Shown here piece by piece: positions 19,386-57,808 of a stretch of DNA of 64,000 bases. The translations under genes were made by a program, and so were the position numbers. Location: positions 1,464,412-1,528,411 of the forward strand of contig NZ_CP132335.1 of NCBI RefSeq assembly GCF_030758295.1, in the 5' to 3' direction. How positions within the stretch are numbered: position 1 is the first letter of the stretch; each line of letters starts with the position of its first letter. Source of the stretch: Pararhizobium sp. IMCC21322. Lineage in GTDB: Bacteria; Pseudomonadota; Alphaproteobacteria; Rhizobiales; GCA-2746425. The notes under the pieces are model-generated. The model saw nothing but the letters and a program-made list of their open reading frames with translations, was not told where the DNA came from and did not search any database.

Positions 19386-19996
19386 GCAACTCTCAAAACG
19401 GTCCGTTGCGCGTTGGCATTGGCGGGCCTGTGGGCACTGGCAAAACCACACTGACCGCCGAATTGTGCAAGGCGATGCGTGATAAATGGTCCATCGGTGT
19501 CATCACCAATGACATTTATACAAGCGAAGATGCAGATGCGTTGGTGCAGCTTCAGGCGCTTTCCGCAGACCGCATCATGGGTGTGGAAACAGGCGGCTGT
19601 CCGCATACGGCCATTCGTGAAGACGCGTCCATCAATCTTCATGCCATCCGTGAGATGAATGAGCGCCATCCTGATCTGGATGTCATTTTCATTGAATCTG
19701 GCGGCGATAATCTGGCGGCCACCTTTTCGCCGGAACTGGCGGATTTGACGCTTTATGTCATTTCTGTCTGTCAGGGCGGAGATATCCCGCGCAAAGGCGG
19801 CCCTGCGATCACGCGTTCAGATTTGCTGATCATCAATAAAACAGAACTGGCGCCCTATGTTGATGTTGATCTGACGCAATTGGAAGCGGATGCCCATAAA
19901 TCTCGCAGTGGTCGTCCGACAGCCATGACAGATCTGCGTAGTGGCAAAGGATTGGAAGCGGTGATCGGTTTTCTACAGGATTCCGGTGGGCTATAG
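19382..19996 (+). CDS. ureG: Urease accessory GTPase UreG
   Basis: A 204-residue SIMIBI GTPase that binds nickel and drives urease activation. The P-loop [11 protein letters not shown] is at residues 14-24, the nickel-binding CPH motif is in [15 protein letters not shown], and [17 protein letters not shown] and INKTEL follow. The last 53 codons are present again, diverged, 2085 bases downstream. The copy in this gene has YVDVDL where the downstream copy has YVGVDL, and the glycine is the more usual residue in UreG. The gene's 3' end may therefore be an imported version, but it looks functional. Confidence 0.96.
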
Positions 19997-20418
19997 CTAG
20001 AAAAAGCGATTTCTTAAAGTATCTGCGCGCTGTCTGAAGCAGAGAGAGCAAGTTCACTTTGGTGCAAGTTTTGAACGTTGTATTTCTAGTCCTTGTGAAG
20101 CGCTTAAGGAAGGCATCCATCACGCAGTTGCTGTCGATCCGCCAAAAGCCAATTGAAGCATGTATGGCTAGCAGAGCAATTGAAAGTGGGTGGAGTGGAG
20201 GAACTGGATGACCGCTGGTCGCATCAGCCATATGTCCTGATTTCTTCCTGTCGGACGGCTAAACATTGGAACCCCGTTGGGGCGGGACAATAAACAAATG
20301 CAGCGTATTACGTGATAACTGTTTGATCGTAAGAAGATTCATGGCGCATCATCTGACATGGATCTTCATCAAAGCAAAGCGGTGACACATGGACATTGCT
20401 TAAGGAGAGGTGATTGTT
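19997..20418. other. Non-coding stretch after ureG with diverged copy of the ureG downstream region
   Basis: The first hundred or so bases resemble, loosely, the sequence after the second ureG 3' copy at 22082-22180: shared pieces include GAAGCAG...GAG..GCAA and TTTGGTG. Here the hairpin has decayed. Further on I see no recognisable gene. AAGGAGAGG at 20402-20410 is the ribosome-binding site of the next gene. Confidence 0.5.
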
Positions 20419-21897
20419 ATGGATGTTCTGCGGCCAAGCAATGACAGCCGGGAACTCGTCAAGCACAGTCGGCAGATGAACTTTGCCATGCTTCTTGTCG
20501 TTGCTATTGTAACAGTGGGTTTTCTAACACAAAGCACCAGCAGATTGGACCGAGCTATAAGCCAAGCGGAAACTATCCAAGGTATGATTGGGTACATCAT
20601 GGATGAAGTCCAAACCAGCCAAGAGATTCCCAATCTGTCCCGGCTCCTTTTGGGAGCGGTGCCACGCGCTGACACAGCGCTGCAAACTTTCGATATCACG
20701 TTCACACGGGCTTCCCCAAGCCCCTTGGAAAATTCGGCATTACCCACCTCGCTGAGGTGCCGTGCGACCGTCGATTTATCTTACTATTTCTACCCAGATC
20801 GTAAATTGGGGGCACAAAACATCAACTTCACAGACGAAATGTCTGGCGAGTATTCTCTTCTCTTATCGACTTTCGGGGCGGGTGGACAAAGTTGGTCGAG
20901 CACCCCGAGATTGCCGAAAGATCTTGCTGAACTGGAGGTGTTCTGGAACGTCTTTGCGGAAACTGGGGAAGCAGTCCGTATGACTAATGTTAAGCCGCAA
21001 CTTGCTTATGCCGAGTTGTATTCAGGCGAAACCGATACCAGTGTTTATTACGTTGCTGAGTCGTACCTGCCGGTTGAAGAACCGCTCAATGAACGCTTGG
21101 TAATGCCAGGGTTAAGTCAGTTTCAAGAATATTTCGAACGGCCTGACGGCGAGATGATGCCTGATTTTCTCCGGAAGTTACCCCCGATGATAAGCGAACC
21201 TTGGGTCGAACACGACGTTGACGGGTTTACACAATCGGAGTGCATCAATCTCGATGCAACTCTATGGCCAGGGTGGATAAGAATTCCTGCCGAATACAAC
21301 TACGAAACAACCAATTGGATAGGCGCTTGGTTTGAGCAATCCGATGGGGCGGGCTACGTGCAGGATAACTTCCGTCCACATCGCGAAAAGTTCAAATCTG
21401 TTTTCCAGGAATTGTCCGTAGAGACGAGCGGCTTAGAAAGTCTGACTTTCAGTGATGCACGAAAATGGTTGAGAACGAGGGCTGTCGCCTCAAAGCAGTC
21501 TGTTGAGGTCTTCGGCGTAGAGGTGCCGGGGGAACTGCTTCGAATTACTGGTATTTCTCTGATTGTAATGATGCAATTGTATACAACAATTCATCTATTG
21601 GAAGCCAAACGACGCCTGGCTATCAGCGAATTGGGTGATCCAGGGGCGTTCGAACCTTGGATCGTGCTCTACGATTCGCCTATAGCAAGGTATGCTGCGA
21701 CGGCATCGTATATTGCACCCATCGGGGCGGCTATTCTAGTTTTCATCAATGTTATGCAAAATGAAGGGCTCGAGAGTTGGGGCGCTCTAATTGCCGCCTT
21801 GGGGCTGTTGGTAGCATTTCTGCTTGGTTCGATTTCTACCCGGGAGGCAATGGGTATCCGCCGCGAGGCACATAGGCACCGTTTAGGACGCAGTTGA
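20419..21897 (+). CDS. Unrecognised membrane protein, inserted cargo behind ureG
   Basis: This 492-residue protein resembles no family I know. It has one hydrophobic segment near residues 20-40 (MLLVVAIVTVGFL), a long soluble middle of about 330 residues that is probably extracytoplasmic, and three hydrophobic segments in the last 120 residues. It ends with an arginine/histidine-rich tail. AAGGAGAGG eight bases upstream fixes ATG 20419 rather than the GTG at 20410. The gene lies between the ureG stop and a repeated ureG 3' end, interrupting the ureG-urtA spacing. It is therefore very likely an insertion unrelated to urea use. Confidence 0.65.
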   Translation: MDVLRPSNDSRELVKHSRQMNFAMLLVVAIVTVGFLTQSTSRLDRAISQAETIQGMIGYIMDEVQTSQEIPNLSRLLLGAVPRADTALQTFDITFTRASPSPLENSALPTSLRCRATVDLSYYFYPDRKLGAQNINFTDEMSGEYSLLLSTFGAGGQSWSSTPRLPKDLAELEVFWNVFAETGEAVRMTNVKPQLAYAELYSGETDTSVYYVAESYLPVEEPLNERLVMPGLSQFQEYFERPDGEMMPDFLRKLPPMISEPWVEHDVDGFTQSECINLDATLWPGWIRIPAEYNYETTNWIGAWFEQSDGAGYVQDNFRPHREKFKSVFQELSVETSGLESLTFSDARKWLRTRAVASKQSVEVFGVEVPGELLRITGISLIVMMQLYTTIHLLEAKRRLAISELGDPGAFEPWIVLYDSPIARYAATASYIAPIGAAILVFINVMQNEGLESWGALIAALGLLVAFLLGSISTREAMGIRREAHRHRLGRS

Positions 21898-21918
21898 ACT
21901 GCCATGATTCAAAAATTC

Positions 21919-22081
21919 CAATAAAACAGAACTGGCGCCTTATGTTGGTGTTGATCTGACGCAATTGGAAGCAGATGCCCATAAATCGCGCAGTGGTCGC
22001 CCGACTGCCATGACAGATCTGCGTAGTGGCAAAGGACTGGAAGCGGTGATCGGTTTTCTACAGGATTCCGGTGGGCTTTGA
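21919..22081 (+). pseudogene. Second, diverged copy of the ureG 3' end
   Basis: These 163 bases match 19834-19996 with no gaps at a constant offset of 2085, with about ten differences by my count, mostly synonymous. The copy starts inside the coding frame (NKTELAPY), has no start codon and ends with TGA. It is followed directly by a good terminator hairpin and then the urtA promoter. This suggests it is the original end of the urease operon, cut off from the rest of ureG by the inserted 2.1 kb. Confidence 0.9.
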
Positions 22082-35476: not shown

Positions 35477-35720
35477 GGGTTTTCCATTCGTTGACACCCC
35501 GAACCGAAGCCTGCCGGTTCTCGGCCGGGCCAGTTTACACCTCGTCGGGTCACTGTTGATATGAGCTAGCCAAATGGCCGCTACAAGCGGAAAAAAGATA
35601 TATTTTTCAAGCCCTAACCAGATGTAATTTAGTCGTAATTTGATCTTTACAATGCGCTTTTGGACTGATTTTCAGCCTCGGAGGCCGGGCGAATTGGCTC
35701 CGCCTGATCCGATGCCGGAT

Positions 35721-38430: not shown

Positions 38431-38565
38431 CTGATTTCCCCAACTTTATTCAAAAAACGCACAGACCAGCGCCAAAAGTTAACAAGAACTTACCGAATTC
38501 TGAGGATTTAGGGAAGCCTGCTTCAAAATGGAGACATTTGCTGGTCGCAGAACAGGCTGGCAAAC

Positions 38566-38653: not shown

Positions 38654-38658
38654 CAGAT

Positions 38659-44819: not shown

Positions 44820-46400
44820 ATGACTTTTTCAAAGTTTATGCAGAGCAGCGCCCTTGCCGGTGTGCTCTTGCTGGGTGCCCAGGGTGCTTATGCCGAGACA
44901 TTCCGCTGGGCCTCGACCACGGATCCACAGACCATGGATCCGCATGCGGTTAATGCAACCCCTGTGCTGTCCTTCCTCAACAATGTGTATGAAGGCCTTG
45001 TGCGCAGAAGCGAGACCATGGCCATTGAGCCATCTCTTGCGACATCCTGGGAGCCGCTTGAAGGCGAAAATGGCTGGCGCTTTAATCTGCGTCAGGGCGT
45101 GAGCTTTCAAAATGGCGCAGCGTTTACCGCTGAAGATGTGATGTTCTCGTATCAACGTGCCTCTGATGAAGCGGCTGATGTGCGCTCGTGGTTTGCGCCT
45201 GTGTCAGAAGTGCGTGTTGTTGATGATTACACCATTGATTTCGTCACAAACGCGCCGAACCCGCTGTTTCCCGACAGCATTGCGAATTTCATGATCCTCG
45301 ACAAGGATTGGGCCGAAAGCAATGACGCTGCCCTTCCGGCACGGGATGCCGAGAACTTTGCGACGATGAATGTCAACGGAACCGGCCCCTTCATGCTGGC
45401 CAGTCGCGACCCCGGGGTGGAAACCCGTCTGGCACCCAATGCAGGCTGGTGGGATACGGCCAGTCACAATGTGACAGAAGCGATCTTCACACCTATTGGC
45501 AACTCTGCCACGGGTCTTGCGGCGCTGCTGTCGGGCGAGATCGATTTCATCCAGCCGATCCCCTTGCAGGATGTGGCGCAGGTGGAAACCCGTGATGGCT
45601 TCAAGGTGCTGGAAGGTGAGGAGACCCGCGTTATCATGTTCGGCTTTGGCCATGAGCATGACAAACTGCTCTATTCCAGTGACATCACCGACACAAATCC
45701 TTTCCAGGACCCAAAGGTGCGTCTGGCAGCGGCTCATGCCATTGATATTGCGGCCATCGATCGGGTGATCATGCGCGGCAAGATCGAAGCTGCATCACAA
45801 CTGGTGCCAGCAGGTATTTCAGGCTTTTCAAAAGCCAATGCAGACCGCCCCGGATATGACCCCGAACGCGCAAAGGCCCTGCTGGCTGAAGCAGGTTATC
45901 CAGACGGGTTTTCCTTTGGCCTCAAATGCACCAATGATCGCTACATTAATGATGAGGCGCTGTGCCGCGCCGCTGCATCCATGTTTGCAGCCGTTGGCCT
46001 GAAGGCAGACCTGACGACAGGGCCAGTGCGCGATTACTGGACCCAGTTGCGCGCCGATGATTTCGATATGTATCTGCTCGGCTGGTCGCCAGGCACGTTC
46101 GATGCCGAGCATCCCATTCGGTTCCTGCTGCACACGCAGAACGATGAAAAGAAGCTGGGTTCCTGGAATTTTGGCAATTATTCCAACGCACGTGTGGATG
46201 AACTTCTGCCACTCATTCAGCAAGAGATCGACCCGGCAGCCCGACAGGCCCTGATCGATGAACTGGTTGGCATCACACAGGATGAAGTGGCCTATATTCC
46301 GCTTTATACGCAGCCGCTGATCTGGGCCGCAAAAGACAATATCGAGCTCACACAACGTGCGGACAATTTCTTCATGCTGCGCTGGGTCACGGTCAACTGA
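44820..46400 (+). CDS. ABC transporter substrate-binding protein, family 5 (oligopeptide/dipeptide type)
   Basis: A 526-residue periplasmic protein with a Sec signal peptide (ALAGVLLLGAQGAYA). The family-5 segments ETFRWASTTDPQTMDPHA, YEGLVRRSETMAIEPSLATSWE and GWRFNLRQGVSFQNGAAFTAEDV follow. Family members carry peptides, nickel, opines or sugars. The residues visible do not settle the ligand. It heads an operon with two permeases and one double ATPase. A 7-bp palindrome lies just upstream. Confidence 0.93.
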   Translation: MTFSKFMQSSALAGVLLLGAQGAYAETFRWASTTDPQTMDPHAVNATPVLSFLNNVYEGLVRRSETMAIEPSLATSWEPLEGENGWRFNLRQGVSFQNGAAFTAEDVMFSYQRASDEAADVRSWFAPVSEVRVVDDYTIDFVTNAPNPLFPDSIANFMILDKDWAESNDAALPARDAENFATMNVNGTGPFMLASRDPGVETRLAPNAGWWDTASHNVTEAIFTPIGNSATGLAALLSGEIDFIQPIPLQDVAQVETRDGFKVLEGEETRVIMFGFGHEHDKLLYSSDITDTNPFQDPKVRLAAAHAIDIAAIDRVIMRGKIEAASQLVPAGISGFSKANADRPGYDPERAKALLAEAGYPDGFSFGLKCTNDRYINDEALCRAAASMFAAVGLKADLTTGPVRDYWTQLRADDFDMYLLGWSPGTFDAEHPIRFLLHTQNDEKKLGSWNFGNYSNARVDELLPLIQQEIDPAARQALIDELVGITQDEVAYIPLYTQPLIWAAKDNIELTQRADNFFMLRWVTVN

Positions 46401-46422
46401 TCGACGGCAGGTAAACCCGGCG

Positions 46423-47397
46423 ATGGCGTTCTTTATTCTCAAACGGCTGGTCCAGTCGATTTTTGTGATGATCGCCGTCGCCTTTCTGGCTTTTTCGCTG
46501 TTCCGTTTTGTCGGCGATCCCGTCAGCCAGATGACGGGCGTTGAAACCTCTGCAGAAGATAGCGCGCGCCTGCGTCAAGAACTGGGGCTGAACGATGCTT
46601 TCATCGTCCAGTTCGGCCGGTTCACCAGCAACATGCTTCACGGTGATTTTGGCTATTCCTACCGGACCCGCCAGCCCGTTGCTGACATGATCGCCTCGCG
46701 CATTCCTGCCACGTTGGAGCTGGGTACGGTTGCCTTGCTGATCTCGCTGCTGGTCGGCATACCCACCGGTGTTTATACGGCGCTGCGCCCGCGCGGCTTC
46801 GTGACCCAGGCCGTTCTGCTGACCACCCTTGTCGGCGTCTCGATTCCGACCTTTGTCATCGGGATCATGCTGATCTTTCTGTTCGGGGTTCAGCTGGGTT
46901 GGCTGCCCACCTTCGGGCGCGGCGGTACTGTGCAAATCGGGGGTTGGACCTCGTCCCTGTTCACGCTTGATGGCTGGCGCGCCCTGATCCTGCCCGCCCT
47001 GACCCTGGGCGTTTACCAGCTGACGCTGACCATGCGGCTGGTGCGGGCCGAGATGATGGAAGTTCTGCGCTCCGACTTCATCCGCTTTGCCACAGCGCGG
47101 GGCATTCCCTATCGCTCGCTTTATTTCCGCCATGCGCTGGCCAATACCATGGTGCCCGTCATCACCATTATCGGTCTCCAGTTTGGCGGGGTCATTGCGT
47201 TTTCAATTGTCACGGAAAGCGTTTTTCAATGGCCCGGCATGGGGTTGTTGTTTCTTGAATCCATCCGCTTTGTCGATATCCCCGTTATGGGCGTCTATCT
47301 GGTGGTGATCGCGTTCTTCTTCGTCCTGGTGAACATGATTGTGGATCTGTTGTATGTCGCCATCGATCCGCGCCTGCGGGTCAGGGAGGATGGTTGA
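46423..47397 (+). CDS. ABC transporter permease, DppB/OppB type
   Basis: A 324-residue inner-membrane permease. FILKRLVQSIFVMIAVAFLAFSLFRFVGDPV is the usual opening and RATARGIPYRSLYFRHALAN-like sequence near residue 225 holds the EAA coupling helix. ATG 46423 is chosen because similarity begins there, and the frame's upstream part overlaps the binding-protein gene. Its stop overlaps the next start in TTGATG. Confidence 0.93.
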   Translation: MAFFILKRLVQSIFVMIAVAFLAFSLFRFVGDPVSQMTGVETSAEDSARLRQELGLNDAFIVQFGRFTSNMLHGDFGYSYRTRQPVADMIASRIPATLELGTVALLISLLVGIPTGVYTALRPRGFVTQAVLLTTLVGVSIPTFVIGIMLIFLFGVQLGWLPTFGRGGTVQIGGWTSSLFTLDGWRALILPALTLGVYQLTLTMRLVRAEMMEVLRSDFIRFATARGIPYRSLYFRHALANTMVPVITIIGLQFGGVIAFSIVTESVFQWPGMGLLFLESIRFVDIPVMGVYLVVIAFFFVLVNMIVDLLYVAIDPRLRVREDG

Positions 47398-48299
47398 TGC
47401 TGGCCCGCATGTTCAAATCCGAGCCGGTCTATCTGTTCTTCCGCAGCCCTGCGGCGATGCTGGCCGCAATTGTGGCAATCCTTGTTGTTGGCGGAGCGAT
47501 TTTTGCGCCGCTGCTGGCCAGCACTGACCCTTATGATCTGGCCTCATTTTCGCTGATGGACGGGCTTTTGCCTCCGCTTTGGGAGGGCGGGAACCCGCGT
47601 TTTCTGCTGGGGACTGATGATCAGGGGCGCGACATGATCTCTGCAATCCTTTATGGCGCGCGGCTTTCGCTGACCATCGGCCTGATGGCGATGGCAATTG
47701 CATCGGTCCTTGGTGTCGGTCTGGGTTTGGCAGCCGGGTATTTCGGCGGACGCTTCGATGCCATCGTCATGCGCATCGCCGACATACAATTGGCATTGCC
47801 TGCCATCCTGACAGCCCTGCTGATTGACGGCATCTCGCGCGGGGTTCTGCCAGCGGCAATCCACCAGGATTTGCGCGTTGCGGTGTTGACCCTGGCCATC
47901 GCGTTATCGCTTTGGGTCAATTTCGCGCGCACAGCGCGGGCCAGTGTGTTTGTCGAGCGTAACAAGGATTATGTGCAGGCCGCCATGATCATGGGCCAAC
48001 ACCCCGTGCGCGTGATGCTGCGGCACATCCTGCCCAACATCATGGGGCCTCTGCTTGTCATCATGACGGTCGATCTGGCATCTGCCATCCTGCTGGAAGC
48101 GACGCTGTCTTTCCTGGGCATTGGCCTGCCTGCGGACAGCCCGTCGCTGGGAACCCTGATACGCATCGGCATGCAGTTTTTGCTGTCGGGTGAGTGGTGG
48201 ATTCTCTGGGTGCCGACGCTGTTCCTTGTGGCGCTGGTGGTCTCCATCAATGTGCTGGGCGATTTCCTGCGCGATGTTTTCAACCCGAGGCTGCGCTGA
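47397..48299 (+). CDS. ABC transporter permease, DppC/OppC type
   Basis: A 300-residue permease starting at the ATG that overlaps the previous stop, with AGGGAGGA seven bases upstream. LLGTDDQGRDMISAILYGARLSLTIG near residue 70 is the family hallmark, and RNKDYVQAAMIMGQHPVRVMLRHILPN holds the coupling helix. It pairs with the upstream permease. Its TGA overlaps the start of the ATPase gene. Confidence 0.94.
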   Translation: MLARMFKSEPVYLFFRSPAAMLAAIVAILVVGGAIFAPLLASTDPYDLASFSLMDGLLPPLWEGGNPRFLLGTDDQGRDMISAILYGARLSLTIGLMAMAIASVLGVGLGLAAGYFGGRFDAIVMRIADIQLALPAILTALLIDGISRGVLPAAIHQDLRVAVLTLAIALSLWVNFARTARASVFVERNKDYVQAAMIMGQHPVRVMLRHILPNIMGPLLVIMTVDLASAILLEATLSFLGIGLPADSPSLGTLIRIGMQFLLSGEWWILWVPTLFLVALVVSINVLGDFLRDVFNPRLR

Positions 48300-50002
48300 T
48301 GTTGCAGATTGAAGGCCTCACCGTGCAATTCCCCGGCCGCTTTGGCGTTTTCACCGCGATTGATGATGTCAGTCTGTCTGTCGCAGCGGGTGAAATCCAT
48401 GGGCTGGTGGGCGAAAGCGGCGCTGGCAAATCCACCCTTGGCGCGGCAATCATTGGCCTTCTGCAAACTCCAGGGTTTGTTGCAAAGGGCAAGATGAGCT
48501 TGGGCGATACGGATTTGCGCAGTCTCAGCCCGGTGCAGGCGCATGACCTGCGTGGCAAGCGGATATCAATGATCTTTCAGGACCCGCAAACCAGCCTGAA
48601 TCCGTTGATGACCATTTCGGACCAACTGATCGAAACCATTCAGGCGCATGAGGATGTCAGCACCTCTGAGGCCCGGGACCGCTCTATCGCGTTGCTCGAA
48701 GAAATAGGGATCGAAAACGCAGCCTCGCGCATAAAAGCCTATCCGCATCAGTTCTCCGGCGGCATGCGCCAGCGGGTTGTCATTGCACTGGCGCTTTGCA
48801 CCAATCCGGAACTGATCATCGCGGATGAGCCGACAACCGCGCTGGATGTGGCGGTTCAAAGCCAGGTTCTGGATCTGATACGCAGATTGGCCAAAACGCG
48901 TGACATTGGCTTTCTGCTGATCACCCACGATATCGGGGTGATCGCGCAGATCACCGATAATGTCACCGTTTTGCGCGGTGGCCGGCTGATGGAAACTGGC
49001 CCGACCCAAAAGGTGCTTCGCACGCCGGAACATGCCTATACAAAATCCCTGATGGCCGCCGTTCCACCGCTGGATCGAAAGCTGGACCGTTTTCTTGTGC
49101 CAGATAGTGACGCGCCGGGCAGCAACACGCCTGATTTGTCAGCACCTGCGGGACGCTCCGCCGCTGATGCCGAGAAATGGCTCACCGCCGGGACGCAAAT
49201 CTTTGGCGAGGGGCTTGGGATGAAGGATGTAACGGTAAAATTTTCCGGTAACCGAACCAGCCTGTTTTCCAGGCCTGCTGCCTTCACGGCGCTCGATGCT
49301 GTGTCCCTGTCCGTGCGTCCCGGTTCCGTCATGGGGCTGGTTGGGGAAAGCGGGTCCGGCAAATCGACCATCGCAAAAGTGCTGACAGGCCTCGTGCAAC
49401 CCAGCGCCGGACAATTGTATCTCGGCGATAATGACTTGCCACCAGCACGTTCGCGCAGTCGTAAAGACCCGTCACGCCGCCAGATTCAAATGGTTTTCCA
49501 GGACCCTTATTCAAGCCTCAATGGCCGCCACAGGATCGGGGACATTCTCGCCGAACCGCTGTGGCATTACGGGCTCGAAGCCGATGCCGACAAGCGCCGC
49601 GACATTGCTGCGGCCATTCTCGACCTCGTAGGCCTCTCGGCAGACGCAATCGACCGGTTTCCGCACCAGTTCTCGGGCGGACAACGCCAGCGCATCGCCG
49701 TTGCCCGCTCGCTTTTGGCACGGCCCAATGTATTGATCTGTGATGAGCCAACCTCTGCGCTTGATGTCTCGATACAGGCGCAAGTGTTGAACCTGCTCAA
49801 GGATTTGCAGGCGCGTTTTGGCCTCACAATCCTGTTCATAAGCCACAATCTGGCCGTGGTGCGCCAAATGTCAGATGATGTGACAGTCCTCAAAGGTGGC
49901 ACTATCGTGGAAACCGGCGCATCAGAAGACTTCTTCACCAACCCAAGCGCGGCCTATTCCCGCGAGCTGCTGTCCTTGACGCCTGGAATGCCAGGTCAAT
50001 AG
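48299..50002 (+). CDS. ABC transporter ATP-binding protein, fused DppD-DppF type
   Basis: A 567-residue double ATPase. The first domain has GESGAGKSTLGAAI, FSGGMRQRVVIA and LIIADEPTTALD. The second has GESGSGKSTIAKVL, FSGGQRQRIAVA and VLICDEPTSALD. Both are complete, so both sites should bind ATP. This fusion replaces separate OppD and OppF proteins. ATG 48299 overlaps the permease stop. It is the last gene of the operon. Confidence 0.94.
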   Translation: MLQIEGLTVQFPGRFGVFTAIDDVSLSVAAGEIHGLVGESGAGKSTLGAAIIGLLQTPGFVAKGKMSLGDTDLRSLSPVQAHDLRGKRISMIFQDPQTSLNPLMTISDQLIETIQAHEDVSTSEARDRSIALLEEIGIENAASRIKAYPHQFSGGMRQRVVIALALCTNPELIIADEPTTALDVAVQSQVLDLIRRLAKTRDIGFLLITHDIGVIAQITDNVTVLRGGRLMETGPTQKVLRTPEHAYTKSLMAAVPPLDRKLDRFLVPDSDAPGSNTPDLSAPAGRSAADAEKWLTAGTQIFGEGLGMKDVTVKFSGNRTSLFSRPAAFTALDAVSLSVRPGSVMGLVGESGSGKSTIAKVLTGLVQPSAGQLYLGDNDLPPARSRSRKDPSRRQIQMVFQDPYSSLNGRHRIGDILAEPLWHYGLEADADKRRDIAAAILDLVGLSADAIDRFPHQFSGGQRQRIAVARSLLARPNVLICDEPTSALDVSIQAQVLNLLKDLQARFGLTILFISHNLAVVRQMSDDVTVLKGGTIVETGASEDFFTNPSAAYSRELLSLTPGMPGQ

Positions 50003-50120
50003 GTTTTTCTGAAATTTAGCGTTTTCTTGGTCCGTTCAAGGTGCCGTGTGCAAGCGGCAGCGAAACACTGCATTCAACGTATGGTGTCAAATACTTCGGC
50101 TTGTGCAAATGGCATTGCAG

Positions 50121-50455
50121 GACCTGCGTTCCAGAAATGTTACCCACAAAATCCGCCTTAGCTGGGGGCGGAATTGTGTGCTGGACCCGTGGTACCCGGA
50201 CGGCAACGACGACATGCTGGACGCGCCTTCATGGGCCTGCATATGACTAGTCCCGCAGCCATGACCCGCTGCTACGAAAGGGTCACCAACCAGACCGCAG
50301 TTATCATGAATCTACTGGATTACGGCTTCGCAATCGGCAAAAAAGCCAGCCTCGTGGCCCTAAACGCCGGAAACTCCATAGAAGCCATCCGCCACCGCCC
50401 GGAGCGCCAGCTGGTCATGGCCAAATGCAGGGTGATAGCCCCGAGCGAACGGTAG
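50121..50455 (+). pseudogene. Cytosine deaminase gene fragment 3 (3' part)
   Basis: This stretch follows codA from about 34318 to its 3' end: TGGGGGCGGAATTGTGTGCT (GWGQDCVL), GACATGCTGGACG, ATGGGCCTGCATATGACTAG (MGLHVAQMTS) and CGGAGCGCCAGCTGGTCATG. One base is missing near 50222, which breaks the frame, and many substitutions have built up. Weak similarity continues past the stop into the codA downstream sequence (GGCGTAACAAGACGCCATAGGCG). It is older than the other fragments and marks the far end of the accessory zone. Confidence 0.85.
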
Positions 50456-50850
50456 GATACAGAATTGACTCTGAAGGGGCCTATTTGCGAGAGACCCGGC
50501 GTAACAAGACGCCATAGGCGCAGAAAGTCAGATACAACAGACGCGAGCGCCATTGTCAGCTCAATGTGACCATTCGAAAAGAACAAGTCGAATGACCGAT
50601 CCGGTCTGAAACCGACTTAAGTCTATGTTCTGGACGATGGCTGTGATGCGAAACCCGAGCGGCTTGGAATCTGGCAGTTCAAAATATTTTCGACAGTACC
50701 CAAAATCCGTATCTCCCAATACTATGAAAATTCCGTGACTAATCAATAATTTAGATCGTCTATGATGGAACCAAGATTCAGTTTTTTGTTGAGTTCGTAG
50801 AGCCTTGACAGTCGGAGAAAATTTCCATGTTTAGATAGCAAACTCTGGGG
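50456..50850. other. Intergenic stretch without a recognisable gene
   Basis: The first 60 bases still resemble the sequence after codA. Beyond that I see no gene, repeat or strong hairpin before the converging PIN-domain gene. Confidence 0.4.
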
Positions 50851-52038
50851 CTACGGTTGCTCTGCCTCGTCTTCGTCCTCGTAATCCTCAGATTCGAAGA
50901 CATCGACTGTGCCAAGCTCAATCTCATGATGCAGATCATCCAATTTGCTTTCTATAAACTCGATCTGCTGATTGGGCGTTCCCAGAGAATGGACGTCGAG
51001 TGTAACGGTTGTGCGTGCCTCAATCTCCTCTTCAACCTCAATTCCTCGCCCTCCCATTTCGACAGACTCTTTGTCAACACTGTCCCAGAATGAAAAATTT
51101 AACTCCACTTGAACCTTCACGACGAGGCTAACTGGTAAACTAACGACTACACGCATGACACCATCGTCATCTCGTCCTACCAACTCTATGATGTCAATTT
51201 CTTCTGGGCTCGGCCAGCCTAGGCTTTTGAGTTCTCCAGCCCATGTGAAAATCTCCACCTCGCCGTGGTTAGGAGAAGCATTCGCGGTAAAATCAAGACG
51301 CTCTATATTGTCGGAAACGCTATCTTGAAATTCGTCTGAGCCATCGCCGTCTTCAGCCAACCACAAGGTTACCGCAGTTCGCAGGCCAAGTGGTGCGTCC
51401 GTAATGAGAGACAATGCGCGTTCGATTTCAGGCCCAAGGAAAAGGCGAGGGGAATTGTTACAAAACGCTTTCCAGTCACCATCTTTTGAAATGACTAGAA
51501 TCCCAATATCTCGATCAGTAGCAATTTGTTCCAAAGCGTTAAGCGCCAAAGCGTCTGGAAACTCATCTTTCTTTCGTCCTGACCCGAAGGGTGGTTCACC
51601 GGCAAAATAATCATCATAAATTGTGGCCGTGTCCACAAGATTAGCGTCGTCCAGCACCTCGCAATTTGTGTCAGCGATGTATTTGTCCCAGCGCGCGCTC
51701 GCAGCTTGCTCAGCAGTCCGTCCACCAGAAATCTGCGTCAGCAATTCTTCGCGCGTAGGTGCAACTGTTTCGAATGAAAATAGTGCCTTTCCAATGGCTA
51801 TTTTGGTCGACCGGAGTGAATCACTTGTCGATTTTTCTAGATGGGCCAAGACTTCCTTAGCAACGGTTTCTGAGAGCAAAAAATCAAACGGGCGTCCGGT
51901 AAGACCTGCGAAAGATTGCAACGTAGCTGAGTTCAATTGCAGGCGTTTTTGATGAAATATGCTAGTATCAATAGAAATAGCGGAAATTTGATCGCGCGCC
52001 AAAAGCGCCTTGAGCTCTTCATCGTTTACAATTGGCAC
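50851..52038 (-). CDS. PIN-domain (DUF4935-like) ribonuclease-like protein
   Basis: A 395-residue protein. The N-terminal half fits a PIN nuclease: D24 in ISIDTSIFHQKRLQL, a glutamate in LSETVAKEVLAHLE, aspartates in EFPDALALNALEQIA and in ILVISKDGDWKAFC. These would bind the metal ions. The C-terminal 180 residues are rich in glutamate and aspartate and beta-strand-like, ending in a very acidic tail (ESEDYEDEDEAEQP). PIN proteins of this class occur in toxin and defence settings. It lies downstream of the TcmP and three-Cys genes in the same direction, 131 bases away. Confidence 0.75.
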   Translation of the reverse strand: MPIVNDEELKALLARDQISAISIDTSIFHQKRLQLNSATLQSFAGLTGRPFDFLLSETVAKEVLAHLEKSTSDSLRSTKIAIGKALFSFETVAPTREELLTQISGGRTAEQAASARWDKYIADTNCEVLDDANLVDTATIYDDYFAGEPPFGSGRKKDEFPDALALNALEQIATDRDIGILVISKDGDWKAFCNNSPRLFLGPEIERALSLITDAPLGLRTAVTLWLAEDGDGSDEFQDSVSDNIERLDFTANASPNHGEVEIFTWAGELKSLGWPSPEEIDIIELVGRDDDGVMRVVVSLPVSLVVKVQVELNFSFWDSVDKESVEMGGRGIEVEEEIEARTTVTLDVHSLGTPNQQIEFIESKLDDLHHEIELGTVDVFESEDYEDEDEAEQP

Positions 52039-52169
52039 ATCAATTCCTTATTTTAGGTTGTGTGATCAGCCTTCATCAATTGCTTAGGAAGCAAGTGTGC
52101 TGCCAATGGGTTAAACTTTTACTAGCAACCCAATATCATCGGTTCTTCTTTGGGTTCAAACTGATTTCG

Positions 52170-53309
52170 CTACGTTAAAGTGATCCGAGTATTGAATTGT
52201 GGCACTCGCTTTCGCGCGGGCAGATCGAAGCGGACTACGCCTCGTTCGCGCATGTTGAGGATCAGAACATTTAGCTGTGTTCGTCTAATCGGAACCGACT
52301 CCATAACTGCGTTGTACAGTGGACCGGGAAAAGCGTGAGCCCGTCCTCTTAGGAAATCACCAATGATAACTTCGGCGCGGTCACAGTTTGTTTTGCACCC
52401 TACACCTCTCTGTTTCTGATGGAACGCTGCAATGTCCTCTGCAGAAAACAGACTTACCTGAGGGCTGTCACCTTCGCGAAGGTTGTGGCGCATTTCCATT
52501 TCCTGCTTTTCAACTTTCTCTTGAACGTCACGGAAGACTTCAAGACCTTTGGGGCTATGTGTGCCGAGAATAAGGCGCATCTTTACCCGCTCTTTCTTTG
52601 GCACCATGATTGAGAAATCTGGCACATAGGTCGCAACCTTGTGCGTCCGCATAGCTTCTTTCATTAAGTGAAGAATTTTCCGTTCGTTACTCCAATCCTC
52701 TGGTAACTTGGAAAAATCATCCTCCCACTGTGCATCGGCAAGGAAGCGACCGAACGATGCCGCTACCTCGGCAAACTCAGCATGCCGATTGATGTGATCA
52801 GACATGAAATTAAGTATGAATTCCCCGCGCCGATCGCGTAGGAACCGAAACACCGCCTCATTTCGGATGTTCCATCCAGTAGGGTCAATGAAAGTGAACG
52901 TGAAGCCGTCAGGCAGTTTCGCCGCAATACTATCCAGATTGTCCTCGAACGCTCCTTCAAAGATGTGAATTTCAAATTTATTTTTCGTGACTGCGTATTC
53001 GCGGAGTCGTTGCACAGCTTCGGATCGCTGTTCACAAAAGCAAAATCTAATCTTTAAGCCGTTGATGCCTCTTTCTTCCAGATTCGAACGCACTTCCTCC
53101 AGGGTGTTGATTGCTTGATCGAAGGAGGCATCGGAATATTTTGCATCATCGGACACTTTCCAAGGTCCAGCGAAGGCATCCACAAAGTTAAATGTAGGTG
53201 AATGGCCTTGCAGCGTAATAATGGCTGCTGCTTGTAGATATTTCGTCAAGAATTGATGCTTGATGAATGATTGTTCGCGGTCACGGTAGAGGTCTATATC
53301 TACTGTCAT
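52170..53309 (-). CDS. tcmP: Three-Cys-motif partner protein TcmP
   Basis: A 379-residue protein of the TcmP family. HQFLTKYLQAAAIITLQGH and FNFVDAFAGPWKV at the N-terminus and TFTFIDPTGWNI near residue 138 are hallmarks, and the core resembles a Rossmann-type methyltransferase-like fold. TcmP is named for its constant association with a protein bearing a three-cysteine motif, which is the next gene upstream, 12 bases away. The biochemical role of the pair is not established. Confidence 0.87.
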   Translation of the reverse strand: MTVDIDLYRDREQSFIKHQFLTKYLQAAAIITLQGHSPTFNFVDAFAGPWKVSDDAKYSDASFDQAINTLEEVRSNLEERGINGLKIRFCFCEQRSEAVQRLREYAVTKNKFEIHIFEGAFEDNLDSIAAKLPDGFTFTFIDPTGWNIRNEAVFRFLRDRRGEFILNFMSDHINRHAEFAEVAASFGRFLADAQWEDDFSKLPEDWSNERKILHLMKEAMRTHKVATYVPDFSIMVPKKERVKMRLILGTHSPKGLEVFRDVQEKVEKQEMEMRHNLREGDSPQVSLFSAEDIAAFHQKQRGVGCKTNCDRAEVIIGDFLRGRAHAFPGPLYNAVMESVPIRRTQLNVLILNMRERGVVRFDLPARKRVPQFNTRITLT

Positions 53310-53321
53310 AACGCTCTTTCA

Positions 53322-54077
53322 CTATCGCAATTCAGCCATGATCGATTTAGGAACAATTTGCCAAGGGAAACCATTCCATTCTGCGCCCTCAAGCATGCGC
53401 CCACCAGATTTTGGTCGCGCTCCGCCCCATTGTTTAAAGAAGAATGCCACATCGAAGAGTTTACAGGCGAGACGTAGTTCTGTCGCCCACGCAGCCTCCA
53501 TTGGTCGCGACCTTGGTCCGCTTTCGCCGCCGACAATCGCCCATGCGATCCCCGATAGGTCGACTTCACCGATTTGCCCCAAGAGGGGTTCGAATGAGAT
53601 GAATCGAGCATCCGAATTGATTTGGCGAAGGTGTTCGATACGACCTTTGTGCGCGCTGTCCTCGACGGAAACACCCAGCCAGATATGCGACGGCACTTTG
53701 CCTTCGCTATACCGCTGCTTGACGTAATTGCGCATAAGTGAAGATCGCTTGGTCAAAACCTGATAGACGTGCCAATCCGCTGCCTCCATAGCATCGAACA
53801 CTTTATCGATATGGGTACGGTCGATCTCTTTGTGGAATAGATCACTCATCGAGTTGACGAAGATCATTCGCGGCTTCTTCCACTGGGCCGGCTGTGTCAG
53901 CCGAGACGGCCAAAGGCGGAGATCGAAACCTTGTTCATACGGGTGTCCTTCGATCCCACGCCAACGTTCTGCAAATCTTTCCGCATAGCAGTTGTCGCAA
54001 CCGGGGCCGACTTTTGTGCAGCCGGTAACCGGGTTCCAAGTTGCATCAGTCCATTCGATTTCAGATTTTTGCGCCAT
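53322..54077 (-). CDS. Three-Cys-motif protein, phage Gp37/Gp68-like (DUF5131)
   Basis: A 251-residue protein. IEWTDATWNPVTGC at the start leads to C20, C27 and C30 in CTKVGPGCDNCYAE, a C-x6-C-x2-C motif that could bind an iron-sulfur cluster as in radical-SAM-like proteins. FVNSMSDLFHKEI, VLTKRS and WLGVSVED are further family segments, and FFFKQWGGARPKSGGR is the usual C-terminal part. Homologues occur in phages and mobile elements. It is the first gene of the set with TcmP. Confidence 0.88.
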   Translation of the reverse strand: MAQKSEIEWTDATWNPVTGCTKVGPGCDNCYAERFAERWRGIEGHPYEQGFDLRLWPSRLTQPAQWKKPRMIFVNSMSDLFHKEIDRTHIDKVFDAMEAADWHVYQVLTKRSSLMRNYVKQRYSEGKVPSHIWLGVSVEDSAHKGRIEHLRQINSDARFISFEPLLGQIGEVDLSGIAWAIVGGESGPRSRPMEAAWATELRLACKLFDVAFFFKQWGGARPKSGGRMLEGAEWNGFPWQIVPKSIMAELR

Positions 54078-54153
54078 TGCTCATACCTTGGTCTAGAAAG
54101 CTTTAACTCACTTACCACAAACAGGGAACTCATTTTCGGGTTGATCCAGCCCC

Positions 54154-54352
54154 CTAAAGACACGCCTCAAACAACGCCCGCGTATTCGCCTCCGTCATCG
54201 AAATCGGATTACCACCCACACTCGAGTCTTTGAGGGCCTCGGCGGCCAGACGGTCCAGATCAGGATTGATGCTGCCAAGTTCTGTCAGGCCTTTTGGGAT
54301 GCCCAGCGCGGCGTTCAAATCTCCCACATAGGCATAGAATTCATCAAAGCTG
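54154..54352 (-). pseudogene. Second copy of the alcohol dehydrogenase 3' end
   Basis: These 199 bases match 56663-56861, the end of the Fe-type alcohol dehydrogenase gene, without gaps at an offset of 2509, with roughly 15-20 percent differences by eye. The frame is preserved (FDEFYAYVGDLNAALGIPK to RALFEACL) and a stop follows. The copy has no start. At 54352 it meets the truncated GNAT gene. The divergence is higher than for the ureG and cupin repeats. Confidence 0.88.
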
Positions 54353-55019
54353 TTTTCGAGCGCAAAGTTGCAACCAAAATGTCGGAGTTCATGGCGCGGA
54401 TTGACAAGCCCATGAACGCGACATTTTCTGCCTACCCGGGTGACGAGCTGCTGGGGTCGGTATCTCTTGACGGTGAAGACCTTGAAGAAGGCGTTAGGGT
54501 GCGGACCCTTTATGGGTGACGAAATAGCAGAACAAATGGCAAAGAGATGCAAGGAAATGCGCGCAGAGCGGGCTTTCTGCCCGGTCAAGCGCTTTGACGC
54601 CGCAGGTCGCAGCCATTTTTCTGTCCATCAAGGATCGGGCCTGTTTGCCCGCAGCCCGCGTCGCAAAGACTTGAAAGTCTTCAGACTTCCTGCTTCTTTG
54701 CTCCTGGTCTGCAAACAAACCGATCCCGACTATTTCACCACCCATAAAGGGTCCGCACCCTAGTCGCCTGCGATGGTTCATTGTCGGCCCCAAGGCAAAA
54801 GGTATGGGCATCGGGCGCCTTTTGCTTAAGAAGGCCACATCCTTCGTGGACCAGAACGCTATTGACCGCACACGCCTTTGGACATTCAAGGGGTTGGACG
54901 CAGCCCGGCATTTATACCAGAAACACGGCTTTCAACTCGAACATGAATCCCCCGGCGCGCAATGGGGCGAGGAAGTTCTTGACCAAGAGTTTTTGCGATT
55001 ACGGACATTGCGCGGCTAA
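54353..55019 (+). pseudogene. GNAT acetyltransferase gene, 5'-truncated and split by a MITE
   Basis: Removing the 264-bp element at 54497-54760 and one TA joins the frame as DGEDLEEGV-S-RLRWFIVGP. The rest reads KGMGIGRLLLKKATSFV, LWTFKGLDAARHLYQKHGF and ends at TAA 55019. This is the C-terminal GNAT domain found in MarR-GNAT two-domain proteins, including the acetyl-CoA-binding G-x-G-x-G/L segment. The 5' part, with the MarR domain and start, is missing: the frame begins at the junction with the alcohol dehydrogenase fragment. The gene is doubly broken. Confidence 0.8.
54497..54760. mobile_element. 264-bp MITE with IS427-like termini
   Basis: The element starts with GGGTGCGGACCCTTTATGGG and ends with its complement, with terminal repeats of about 31 bp containing two mismatches. 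It is flanked by TA at 54495-54496 and 54761-54762. Inside lies a second dyad (GATCGG...GTTTG / CAAAC...CCGATC) and AAGACTTGAAAGTCTT, but no coding frame. The outer dozen bases agree with the ends of the IS427-group element at 42948, which suggests mobilisation by such a transposase. It interrupts the GNAT frame exactly at TA. Confidence 0.85.
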
Positions 55020-55353
55020 AGGAGAACGGTCGCAAAGTCGGCATTGCTGCCTTTTCGCCAAAGAGCAAATTAGTGCGCTCCGGTTTATTCTGCAAAAGGT
55101 CCGCCGTGGCGAGCCTTGTAAGTTGCAATTTAGGTTGAAGCCTCATTAATTCAAAGGATGCAATGACCGTTTCGAGCCCATCTTGCAGGTTTTCTGCATC
55201 GCGGCGAAAGTCAGCATTGAGAGAACTGGCGCATTGCAAGATGGGAATGGTGGACATGGTCGAAACCATCGGATTAAGGTTGAAAGGGAGCAGGAAGTTG
55301 CTGCCACCAGGCAAGCTGGTACAATGTTTTTGAATTATTCAAAGGAATTCACT
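55020..55353. other. Non-coding stretch upstream of a membrane-protein gene
   Basis: A reverse-strand frame covers 54886-55314, but it overlaps the GNAT remnant and resembles nothing, so it is not called. AAAGGAAT at about 55340 serves the next gene. Nothing else is recognisable. Confidence 0.4.
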
Positions 55354-56349
55354 ATGTGGGATTTTAGTATGGGGACAGCGTTTGGATTGATGCGCAAGAC
55401 AGCGCCCTTTCTGTTATTTCGAATTGTTGTCTACTTTGGGATCGCAGTAGCATATGTGCTGGTGACAGGTACGGGCGCTGGTATCGGTTACGGTGTTGGT
55501 GGCTTTGGAGATGACGATTTTCAGGCATCCACAACCGTTTGGGGAGGCATCATCGGCTTCGGAGTTACAGCTGGTGTGCTGTATCTTATGCGCGAGTATC
55601 TATTGTATGTTGTCAAAGCGGGCCATATCGCGGTGATGGTAGAGATCTTGGACGGTCGCGAATTGCCGGATGGCCAAGGTCAAATCGCATACGCCCGAAA
55701 GATCGTCACCGAACGTTTTGGAGAAGCCTCGGTTCTGTTCGGGATCGATCAGTTGATCAAAGGGGTAGTCAGAGCGATTACCGGGCTGATCCAAGGGCTT
55801 TTGACGATCATTCCGATCCCCGGGCTAAACAAGGTAATGTCGCTGGTGCGGGCCTACTTGAAGCTCGCTGTTGGGCTTGTTGATGAGGTAATCCTTGCTC
55901 ATGGGCTGCGCACAAGGGCTGAAAATCCCTATGCCTCCGCGAAAGAAGCGCTCGTGCTTTATGGTCAGAACGCCAAGCCTATGCTGAAGAATGCTGCATG
56001 GCTGACTTTGTTCACATGGGGTCTTTCAATCGTTGTATTCCTGTTCATGTTGGCTCCTGCGGCGGCGGTTGTTTACATCATGCCGGGTACGTGGTCGGCA
56101 GGAGGTATGGTCTTTGCCTTGCTCTTTGCCTGGGCCGTGAAGGTCGCAGTGATTGAGCCATTTGCGATTGCCTGTCTCTTGCAGGCATTCTTTAAGGTCA
56201 CGGCAGGTCAGGAGCCCAATCCAGAATGGGAAGCCAAACTTGAAACGGCTTCGGTGAAGTTCAAAACCCTGGGCGAGCGAGCCGTGACTTGGGCGAGTGG
56301 TGGGCGCGGTAATCCCACCCCAAAGGCACCACCAGGTACCACAGCTTGA
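55354..56349 (+). CDS. Multi-pass membrane protein of unknown function
   Basis: From ATG 55354, preceded by AAAGGAAT, the frame encodes 331 residues with about six hydrophobic segments: two in the first 100 residues (IVVYFGIAVAYVLVTG, VWGGIIGFGVTAGVLYL), one or two amphipathic ones around residues 140-180, and two or three after residue 210. A soluble tail rich in G, P and K follows. I do not recognise a named family. The frame is open upstream to 55183 without support. It lies between the alcohol dehydrogenase 3' copy and the intact alcohol dehydrogenase, so it is part of the inserted cargo. Confidence 0.7.
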   Translation: MWDFSMGTAFGLMRKTAPFLLFRIVVYFGIAVAYVLVTGTGAGIGYGVGGFGDDDFQASTTVWGGIIGFGVTAGVLYLMREYLLYVVKAGHIAVMVEILDGRELPDGQGQIAYARKIVTERFGEASVLFGIDQLIKGVVRAITGLIQGLLTIIPIPGLNKVMSLVRAYLKLAVGLVDEVILAHGLRTRAENPYASAKEALVLYGQNAKPMLKNAAWLTLFTWGLSIVVFLFMLAPAAAVVYIMPGTWSAGGMVFALLFAWAVKVAVIEPFAIACLLQAFFKVTAGQEPNPEWEAKLETASVKFKTLGERAVTWASGGRGNPTPKAPPGTTA

Positions 56350-56662
56350 ATCTAATAAATGCAGACCCGGCGTGGGCCGCTATCCAGTATTGATGATTGC
56401 AGATCAAAGCCACTGATATCATATGCTACGGAATCAGCCTTTTGACCTTGCTGCCTCCACCATTTGTTGCACGCCGAATCCGGTCATTGGTCAGGTTTCG
56501 GCGCAGCGAAGGTCCGCTTCCCGCCCATATTGCCAGGCGTTTAGTTTAACGCGAATGTGGTCGAAAGATTGTCAGAGGGGCGCGGCCACTGCGACAAGTG
56601 TCCTGTTTCACTATGCCTTTGCCTTACGACAGCGGTATTGCTTTTGTTACGAGGCCCGGAGC
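56350..56662. other. Intergenic stretch without a recognisable gene
   Basis: Between the membrane protein and the converging alcohol dehydrogenase I see no gene and no strong terminator. The right-hand cargo junction of the alcohol dehydrogenase duplication must lie in or near this stretch. Confidence 0.4.
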
Positions 56663-57808
56663 CTAAAAACACGCCTCAAACAACGCCCGTGTATTCTCTG
56701 CATTCATCTCAACCGGATTACCACCCACACTCGGGTCTTTCAGCGCTTCCGCCGTCAGATGATCCAGATCAGGATCGCTCACCCCAAGTTCTGTCAGGTC
56801 TTTCGGGATGCCCAGCGCGGCGTTCAACTCTCCCACATAGGCGTAGAATTCATCAAAGCTGGAGCCGATGCCAAGATAGGCGGCGGCCTGAGCAAGTCGC
56901 TCTTCGATGGCGGGCCGGTTGAACATCAGCACGGGCTGCATGACCACCGCATTTGTGGTGCCATGATGGGTGTGATGGATCGCGCCGATGGGGTGTGAAA
57001 GGGCATGGATGGCCCCGAGCCCTTTTTGAAAGGCGGTTGCACCCATGGCCGCAGCGCTCATCATGTTCGCACGGGCTTCCAGATCAGTTCCGTCTCGATA
57101 GGCGCGCAGAAGATTGTCCTTCACCAGCTTCATGCCTTCCAGCGCAATGCCTTGGGACATGGGGTGGTAATGCGGCGAGCAATAAGCTTCCAGACAATGG
57201 GCAAAAGCATCCATACCGGTGCCGGCGGTAATCATTTTCGGCATGCCGACCGTCAGTTCGGGATCGCAGATGACAATGGCCGGAAGTGTTTTGGGATGAA
57301 AAATGATCTTCTTCACATGGGTGTCTGAATTGGTCAGAACACCGGCACGGCCAACTTCTGAACCGGTGCCAGCCGTGGTTGGAACCGCAATGATCGGATG
57401 AATGGCATCCGCATTGGCGCGGGTCCACCAGTCGCCGACATCTTCCAGGTCCCAAACCGGGATGGTCTGGTCTGCCATCAGCGCAATCAGCTTGCCAAGG
57501 TCGAGACCGGAGCCGCCACCAAATGCAATGACACCATCATGCTTGCCAGCCTTGAAAGCTTTCACGCCGTCGGTCAGGTTTTGTTCATTCGGATTTGGGT
57601 CAACGTCGCTGAACAGAGCACGGCCAAGGCCCGCCTGGTCCAGAATATCCAGCGTGGCGGCGGTAATCGGCAGACTTGCCAGACCCTTGTCCGTCACCAG
57701 AAGAGGCTTTTTGATGCCCGTGGCCGCACAGGCTTCTGCGAGTTCGGTAATGCGCCCGGCACCAAAACGAATGGCGGTCGGGTAGCTCCAGTTTGCAGTT
57801 GGAACCAT
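56663..57808 (-). CDS. Iron-containing (group III) alcohol dehydrogenase
   Basis: A 381-residue NAD(P)-dependent dehydrogenase. GGGSGLDLGK near residue 95 binds the nucleotide. TTAGTGSEVGRAGV, TAGTGMDAFAHCLEAYCSPHYHP and LSHPIGAIHHTHHGTTNAV carry the metal-binding aspartate and histidines. ATG 57808 follows GAAGGCCTGACC and begins with the family strand WSYPTAIRFGAGR. It stands five bases after the aldehyde dehydrogenase in one operon. In that setting it would oxidise an alcohol, perhaps a gamma-glutamylated amino alcohol. The last 199 bases are repeated at 54154. Confidence 0.9.
   Translation of the reverse strand: MVPTANWSYPTAIRFGAGRITELAEACAATGIKKPLLVTDKGLASLPITAATLDILDQAGLGRALFSDVDPNPNEQNLTDGVKAFKAGKHDGVIAFGGGSGLDLGKLIALMADQTIPVWDLEDVGDWWTRANADAIHPIIAVPTTAGTGSEVGRAGVLTNSDTHVKKIIFHPKTLPAIVICDPELTVGMPKMITAGTGMDAFAHCLEAYCSPHYHPMSQGIALEGMKLVKDNLLRAYRDGTDLEARANMMSAAAMGATAFQKGLGAIHALSHPIGAIHHTHHGTTNAVVMQPVLMFNRPAIEERLAQAAAYLGIGSSFDEFYAYVGELNAALGIPKDLTELGVSDPDLDHLTAEALKDPSVGGNPVEMNAENTRALFEACF

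What the first reader, a model, noticed from the sequence alone, without database searches (positions are those of the whole stretch)
19834..56861. Possible general mechanism: cargo of about 2 kb repeatedly integrated at gene 3' ends with duplication of the anchor
Three independent loci share topology (full gene, cargo, 3'-only copy, direct repeats), anchor length (163-295 bp) and spacing (2085, 2485, 2509). The codA locus shows the same order over a longer range. A single-crossover (Campbell-type) integration of circular DNA carrying a related gene end would yield this, as would an unknown element that captures gene ends. No integrase is present in the cargos. I know of no described system that fits exactly.
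Basis: inference. Interest (0 to 1): 0.8.

Follow-up and report, generated by a model that had tools for sequence, protein, structure and literature searches.

The report
Gene-end scars from one-sided DNA insertion
In a bacterium of the order Hyphomicrobiales, DNA from related strains seems to have been added repeatedly next to ordinary genes, each time leaving the tail end of the old gene copy behind as a scar; the likely mechanism is a known kind of recombination, but layered scars at housekeeping genes are unusual.

Summary
The repeats are real. ureG, a cupin gene and an iron-type alcohol dehydrogenase (ADH) each have an intact copy, inserted DNA and a 3'-only copy; codA shows it over 15.8 kb. 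Congener G002 has the empty ureG site: stop codon to urtA is 392 bp, against 391 bp after the 3' fragment here. The fragment is therefore the native gene end; cargo and a foreign ureG end were added. A second hotspot 0.85 Mb away repeats the pattern. There the intact gene's tail switches to a G001-like haplotype, contiguous with G001-like cargo, while the fragment stays G002-like along its length. G002 and G003 have further cases. Spacings run from 2.1 to 23 kb, breakpoints differ for the same gene, and no integrase was found in 50 proteins scanned. Best explanation: one-sided homologous recombination with congener DNA, closed by illegitimate joining. Homology-facilitated illegitimate recombination and rhs C-terminal displacement are known parallels, so this is not a new element; nested scars at both borders of integrase-free hotspots are a new variant. 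Donor and recipient are identifiable at one locus only. The pattern is rare elsewhere: 1 of 94 sampled 20-kb stretches.

The parts
19382..19996 (+). ureG, intact; its 3' end is read as the foreign allele
   Evidence: Pfam CobW/HypB/UreG; downstream sequence differs from that of G001 and G002
20068..21918 (+). cargo A, with one ORF 20410-21897 (495 aa, no Pfam match; looks like a membrane protein by eye)
   Evidence: found only in its own genome among 101 searched; no match in phages or plasmids or in the pattern-based scan of genome contigs
21919..22081 (+). native ureG 3' end left as scar; followed by the native 391-bp ureG-urtA spacer
   Evidence: spacer length 392 bp in G002
33442..34722 (+). 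codA (amidohydrolase family), intact; left border of the hotspot
   Evidence: Pfam; matched in G001-G004
35681..35791 (+). short internal codA fragment (residues 228-264) just upstream of the intact cupin gene; not a 3' end
   Evidence: tblastn E 6e-4; blastn 75 bp at 81%
35908..36468 (+). cupin gene, intact
36574..38430 (-). cargo B: 618-aa protein, sub-threshold autotransporter beta-domain match
   Evidence: found only in its own genome among 101 searched
38561..38654 (+). codA fragments fused to the cupin scar
38646..38953 (+). cupin 3' scar (residues 86-186)
44820..50002 (+). peptide-type ABC transporter operon; conserved in G001 and G002, separates two variable segments
   Evidence: three of its four genes scanned
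50117..50544 (+). codA 3' scar (residues 298-424, frame broken)
50851..54077 (-). genes between the codA and ADH scars: PIN-domain protein (no PADLOC match), a protein matching PADLOC PDC-M30A, and a DUF5131 protein matching PDC-M41B/M30B
54153..54366 (-). ADH 3' scar (residues 348-416)
55183..56349 (+). cargo C: 388-aa ORF; homologue at another place in G002
56663..57916 (-). Fe-type alcohol dehydrogenase, intact; right border of the hotspot
   Evidence: Pfam; matched in G001-G004

Best explanation
DNA from a related strain or species enters the cell. It pairs with the chromosome through one gene it shares at the edge of a variable region (ureG, codA, ADH, a pcaD-like gene) and recombines there homologously. 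Its other end, which has no homology, is joined illegitimately inside the resident copy of the same gene, upstream of that copy's 3' end. The product is a complete gene whose 3' end and downstream DNA are foreign, then the cargo, then the resident 3' end as a presumably silent scar, then the old neighbours. Repetition at both borders of a region between convergent genes gives nested scars. Shown: empty site at ureG, haplotype switch at one locus, varying breakpoints. Inferred: linear donor, route of entry, extension of the mechanism to the other loci, and selection (insertion beyond a gene end harms neither gene nor promoter) as the reason for 3' ends.
For: Empty ureG site in G002, spacer 392 versus 391 bp. 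At ureG the coding copies are 95.6% identical over 159 bp but the DNA after the stop only 50.7% (shuffles: mean 43.4, best of 30 was 62.5); after the stop G002 matches the fragment 78.5% and the intact gene 59.2%. At the pcaD-like locus G001 has the same gene plus cargo contiguously without a scar (80-82%). At sites where G002 and G001 differ the intact gene matches G002:G001 51:13 upstream but 8:15 in its last 120 bp (p = 0.00017, one of 8 tests in that call; the 120-bp cut was chosen), while the scar is 56:18 and not mosaic (29:11 and 27:7 in its halves). Copy differences pooled over ten pairs fall 131/110/260 on codon positions 1/2/3. Breakpoints in ADH differ in three genomes. A 6-bp shared word lies at the codA/cupin fusion.
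Against: Only the pcaD-like locus has identifiable proxies for both donor and recipient; ureG and codA show no haplotype switch (p > 0.4) and ADH only a marginal shift (p = 0.046 over the span, 0.61 over the last 120 bp). Cargoes A and B have no known source. Two of ten pairs (ADH in G000, ADH in G002) show no significant third-position excess, and the G002 ADH alignment is poor. blastn carries the intact ureG/G002 match 71 bp past the stop, so that downstream DNA is not wholly foreign. Laboratory homology-facilitated illegitimate recombination usually deletes about as much as it inserts and is rare (PMC3240628 introduction); at ureG nothing visible was lost. No Ku gene in 5 of 5 genus genomes. 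Gene 5'-end repeats occur in 2 of 80 control loci, so a 3' bias is not universal. 8-mers shared by 3 of 10 junctions were reached by only 3 of 300 shuffles.
Confidence: 0.62

Rival explanations
1. Campbell-type single crossover: a circular molecule carrying a gene 3' end plus cargo integrates by one homologous crossover in the resident gene, as Jackson et al. 2009 propose for rhs.
For: Gives the same topology with no illegitimate step in the recipient; proposed for rhs displacement (passages of PMC2935791).
Against: It predicts a mosaic scar: donor-like before the crossover, native after it. At the pcaD-like locus the scar is G002-like in both halves (29:11 and 27:7, p = 0.59), and its first part (21:7) differs from the donor-like tail of the intact gene (8:15, p = 0.005). 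The G001 arrangement there is an ordinary chromosomal gene order, so no circle is needed. One locus only.
Confidence: 0.2
2. Ordinary tandem duplication of a gene and its surroundings inside one genome, followed by loss of the 5' half of one copy.
For: Direct orientation; some scars are clearly decayed (the G000 codA scar matches codA only in two different frames).
Against: At ureG the scar's downstream DNA, not the intact gene's, is that of the empty site; third-codon excess in 8 of 10 pairs; downstream DNA far more diverged than coding DNA; haplotype switch at the pcaD-like locus.
Confidence: 0.08
3. Remnants of integrative elements that insert site-specifically in gene 3' ends and restore them (phage 21 at icd, CIME-like accretion; both recalled, not looked up).
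For: Topology and nested accretion resemble it; 8-mers shared by 3 of 10 junction windows are rarer in shuffles (3 of 300).
Against: At least five different genes, no integrase in 50 proteins scanned, breakpoints at ADH residues 275, 292 and 348, repeat lengths 145-544 bp; one of the three 8-mer occurrences is codA coding sequence.
Confidence: 0.05

Closest known systems
Homology-facilitated illegitimate recombination (Streptococcus pneumoniae, Acinetobacter baylyi, Pseudomonas stutzeri; rare in E. coli), PMC3240628 (outline, abstract and introduction read)
   Same: One homologous end, one illegitimate end, foreign DNA gained without a mobile element.
   Different: The laboratory product usually loses about as much as it gains; here DNA is added and the gene end is duplicated. 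Seen here only as evolutionary scars.
Rhs C-terminal displacement, PMC2935791 (passages read), and T6SS effector/immunity displacement in Vibrio cholerae, PMC5361080 (passages read)
   Same: Complete gene, new segment, displaced old 3' ends downstream, repeated in arrays; circular intermediates or homology-facilitated illegitimate recombination proposed there.
   Different: There the anchor is a polymorphic toxin gene and the tip itself changes; here the anchors are housekeeping-type genes whose product stays the same, and the cargo is unrelated genes.
Hotspots without mobile elements driven by recombination at flanking core genes, PMC5635113 (passages read)
   Same: Variable region between core genes, no integrase seen, recombination in the flanking genes.
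   Different: The model there is double homologous recombination; by my reasoning that leaves no duplicated gene ends, whereas the scars here point to one-sided, additive events.

Membership tests
Homology-facilitated illegitimate recombination | homologous exchange at one end only | tested here: met
   Haplotype switch inside the pcaD-like gene at one end, no evident homology at the other; shown at one locus only
Homology-facilitated illegitimate recombination | 3-10 bp microhomology at the illegitimate junction | tested here: inconclusive
   6 bp at the codA/cupin fusion, which may be a later deletion; other junctions lack a known donor sequence or are too diverged
Homology-facilitated illegitimate recombination | insertion accompanied by a deletion of similar size (usual in the laboratory) | tested here: not met
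   At ureG the native spacer is intact, 391 versus 392 bp; the source says 'generally observed', not always
Homology-facilitated illegitimate recombination | RecA dependence | not testable with these tools
   needs an experiment
Campbell-type circular integration | mosaic donor/native fragment | tested here: not met
   pcaD-like scar G002-like in both halves; one locus only
Site-specific integrative element at gene 3' ends | integrase gene and fixed core site | tested here: not met
   No integrase in 50 proteins scanned; three ADH breakpoints
Rhs/polymorphic toxin displacement | anchor gene encodes a polymorphic toxin | tested here: not met
   Anchors match UreG, amidohydrolase, cupin, Fe-ADH, alpha/beta hydrolase and CrtC families
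Flanking-core-gene recombination hotspot | variable contents between syntenic core genes without recombinase | tested here: met
   codA-ADH distance about 11 kb in G001, 32 kb in G002, 18 kb in G003, 22 kb here; one DDE transposase among the G003 proteins scanned; not all ORFs scanned

The most novel reading that the evidence does not exclude
In this genus, integrase-free hotspots grow mainly by addition rather than exchange: one-sided recombination repeatedly stacks new DNA against whichever core gene faces the hotspot, and the 3' scars are datable growth rings that record order, donor and direction of each gain.
Probability: 0.35. Interest if true: 0.6.

Novelty: new variant of a known kind. 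Interest (0 to 1): 0.45.

Why it matters
Many bacterial gain hotspots have no recognisable mobile element (PMC5635113), and the model proposed for them, double exchange at flanking core genes, should leave no duplicated gene ends. Gene-end scars are a trace that can be read by alignment: they mark single additive gains, show which allele is native, and give the order of events. Scanning related genomes for intact gene/cargo/3' fragment triplets would test how hotspots and the defence-like genes in them accumulate.

Tried and rejected
Site-specific element: rejected on breakpoints, repeat lengths and lack of integrase. Junction motif search: two overlapping 8-mers occur in 3 of 10 junction windows, which only 3 of 300 simple shuffles reached; one of the occurrences is codA coding sequence, so I do not read it as a motif. 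Gene transfer agent as carrier: the GTA domain PF13547 is in G004 only, 1 of 5 genus genomes, and not in this one. Ku end joining: 0 of 5. Phage or plasmid source of the cargoes: cargo A no match in phages or plasmids, cargo B none in plasmids; cargo C matches 87 plasmid records, 80 of them at 60-80% identity; cargoes B and C were not tried against phages. Generality outside the genus: in 80 codA loci from named genomes (one of them, L218, is the G001 record) no extra codA fragment was found at E 1e-6. Claim of a universal 3' bias: dropped, since two of those loci (L238, L242) show repeats at gene 5' ends; the other direct repeats there I judged by eye as paralogues, repeats inside genes or unclear (for example L239, L269). 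In the G000 sample one further direct pair (L146, 185 bp, 75%, 18 kb apart) may be a worn gene-end fragment and was left uncounted.

Two paper look-ups failed on a character in a term and were repeated without it.
Full report
Setting. The window is bases 1464412-1528411 of a 5.25-Mb single-contig genome (G000). Four congeners are held, G001-G004.

Self-comparison gives exactly the pairs described: ureG (159 bp, 95.6%), cupin (298 bp, 92.3%), Fe-ADH (200 bp, 85.5%), and codA over a longer range (441 columns, 75.7%). These are far beyond chance (E from 1e-60 to 1e-122). For the first three the homology stops within about ten bases of the end of the stop codon.

Locus A, ureG. In G002 ureG is followed by urtA after 392 bp, with no cargo. 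In the window the 3' fragment, not the intact gene, is followed by the matching 391-bp spacer; G001's sequence upstream of urtA matches that spacer too. The fragment is therefore the resident gene end and the cargo was added upstream of it. The two ureG ends are 95.6% identical in the coding part but only 50.7% in the 76-80 bp after the stop, within the range of shuffled sequence (mean 43.4, maximum 62.5 of 30). Over that stretch G002 matches the fragment 78.5% and the intact gene 59.2%, and blastn carries the intact/G002 match 71 bp past the stop, so some old homology may remain there. My reading is that the copies diverged as functional genes in different chromosomes before they met. G001 has a different cargo between ureG and urtA (including a GGDEF/EAL protein) and no fragment; in G003 ureG is followed directly by sequence homologous to window 27503 onward.

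Locus codA-ADH. Both genes point their 3' ends into the region between them. Its length is about 11 kb in G001, 32 kb in G002, 18 kb in G003 and 22 kb here. In the contiguous regions examined (window plus 20-kb flanks, and 80, 100 and 60 kb of G001, G002 and G003) every direct repeat of at least 80 bp is a gene 3' end with the rest of the gene missing: 8 of 8 (four, none, two and two); the one other pair, in G003, is inverted. Shorter repeats exist that are not gene ends (two internal codA fragments and pieces of a MITE-like element). ADH scars begin at residue 348 here, 292 in G002 and 275 in G003, so breakpoints are not fixed. The cupin scar does not look independent: it is joined to codA fragments over a shared GCTGGA, and another codA fragment lies just upstream of the intact cupin gene. 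I read this as codA-anchored events followed by deletions; that order is inference. Contents include genes matching PADLOC candidate-defence models (39207-40103, 42125-44205, 52170-54077).

A second hotspot. Forty 20-kb stretches of G000 (0.8 Mb; one of them adjoins the window) gave nine repeat pairs, eight of them direct, of which one is a clean gene 3' end: a pcaD-like hydrolase with a 354-bp, 84% copy 2750 bp on; one more (L146) is unclear. The place lies 0.85 Mb from the window. On the other side of the same region a CrtC-like gene facing inwards has a 3' scar too. Spaced stretches of G001 (14), G003 (20) and G002 (20) gave no such triplet, only tandem paralogues and repeats within or beside genes. 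So 1 of 94 stretches; pairs that straddle a stretch border are missed, as happened with the CrtC-like pair.

Donor and recipient at the pcaD-like locus. G001 carries gene, cytochrome c', LysR and reductase in one contiguous run, 80-82% identical to the window genome, without a scar. The fragment's match to G002 runs about 65 bp past its stop (81% overall). At sites where G002 and G001 differ, the intact gene matches them 51:13 upstream of the duplicated part, but 8:15 in its last 120 bp (Fisher p = 0.00017). Eight such tests were made over four loci; besides this locus (also 0.0038 over the whole span) only ADH over its span fell below 0.05 (0.046), and the 120-bp cut was chosen after seeing the sliding-window table. 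The last eleven informative sites are all G001-like. The scar matches 56:18 and does so evenly in both halves (29:11, 27:7, p = 0.59). A G001-like haplotype has therefore been added to a G002-like chromosome by exchange inside the gene. A circular donor would have made the scar mosaic; it is not (its first part, 21:7, differs from the intact tail, 8:15, p = 0.005). This is one locus.

Age and selection. Differences between copies, pooled over ten pairs, fall 131, 110 and 260 on codon positions 1, 2 and 3 (52% third; p about 1e-17 against one third), compared with 74% third between intact orthologues. Most pairs thus diverged largely under selection, with later decay. Two pairs alone show no significant excess (G000 ADH, p = 0.14; G002 ADH, p = 0.07); the G002 ADH alignment is poor, with 649 gap columns, and leaving it out gives 55% third. 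The pairs share genes and ancestry, so the pooled p overstates independence.

Why 3' ends? Regions between convergent genes expose only 3' ends, and insertion after a stop codon leaves promoters intact; a 3' fragment is probably silent. That is inference. It is not universal: in 80 codA loci from named genomes (one of them G001's own record) no extra codA fragment was found and two loci show gene 5'-end repeats.

Carrier. No Ku gene in 5 of 5 genus genomes and a GTA domain in 1 of 5, not in this genome. How the DNA enters is unknown.

Comparison with print. Homology-facilitated illegitimate recombination is reported in three transformable species and is rare in E. coli conjugation; the insertion is generally paired with a deletion of similar size (PMC3240628, outline, abstract and introduction), which is not seen at ureG. 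PMC2935791 describes displaced 3' ends of rhs genes and proposes circular intermediates (passages). PMC5361080 invokes homology-facilitated illegitimate recombination for T6SS immunity arrays (passages). [quoted passage not shown] PMC2884548 invokes the one-sided process for small variable segments (passages). I also saw passages of PMC3784515 on transformation-made merodiploids. Five searches of the held library listed no title or abstract start that describes nested 3' scars of housekeeping genes at hotspot borders; for most papers only the listing was seen, the lists showed at most 25 rows, and most subscription papers are not held.

Verdict. The finding is real and more general than its three loci, but it is best explained by known recombination acting in an additive way, not by a new element. 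New variant of a known kind; interest 0.45.

Noticed in passing
54494-54762: 269-bp element with 33-bp inverted ends, six further copies at 98-99% in this genome and several in G002: MITE-like, no ORF examined. It lies between the ADH scar and cargo C.
   Followed up: partly
34984-35192: About 200-bp interspersed repeat with further copies in each of G000-G003.
   Followed up: no
42125-44205: DUF3644 protein (PADLOC PDC-S19) appears in two pieces: the N-terminal part matches in ORF 43633-44205, the rest in 42125-43132.
   Followed up: no
50851-54077: PIN-domain protein, PDC-M30A-like protein (TcmP-like by recall) and DUF5131 protein in one run.
   Followed up: no
G002:C18:64939-66084 (L115): Homologue of cargo C at another chromosomal place in G002; the search reports four stop codons inside its frame.
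   Followed up: no
G004:C6:35558-36469 (L217): GTA domain PF13547 present in G004 but not found in the other four genus genomes, which may mean loss of a gene transfer agent.
   Followed up: no
L238:5210-5320 and 7957-8066; L242:8852-9029 and 17676-17854: Direct repeats at gene 5' ends near codA in other alphaproteobacteria, the mirror image of the pattern studied.
   Followed up: no
L182:9829-19962: 3377-aa ORF made largely of tandem repeats with a period of about 294 bp in this genome.
   Followed up: no
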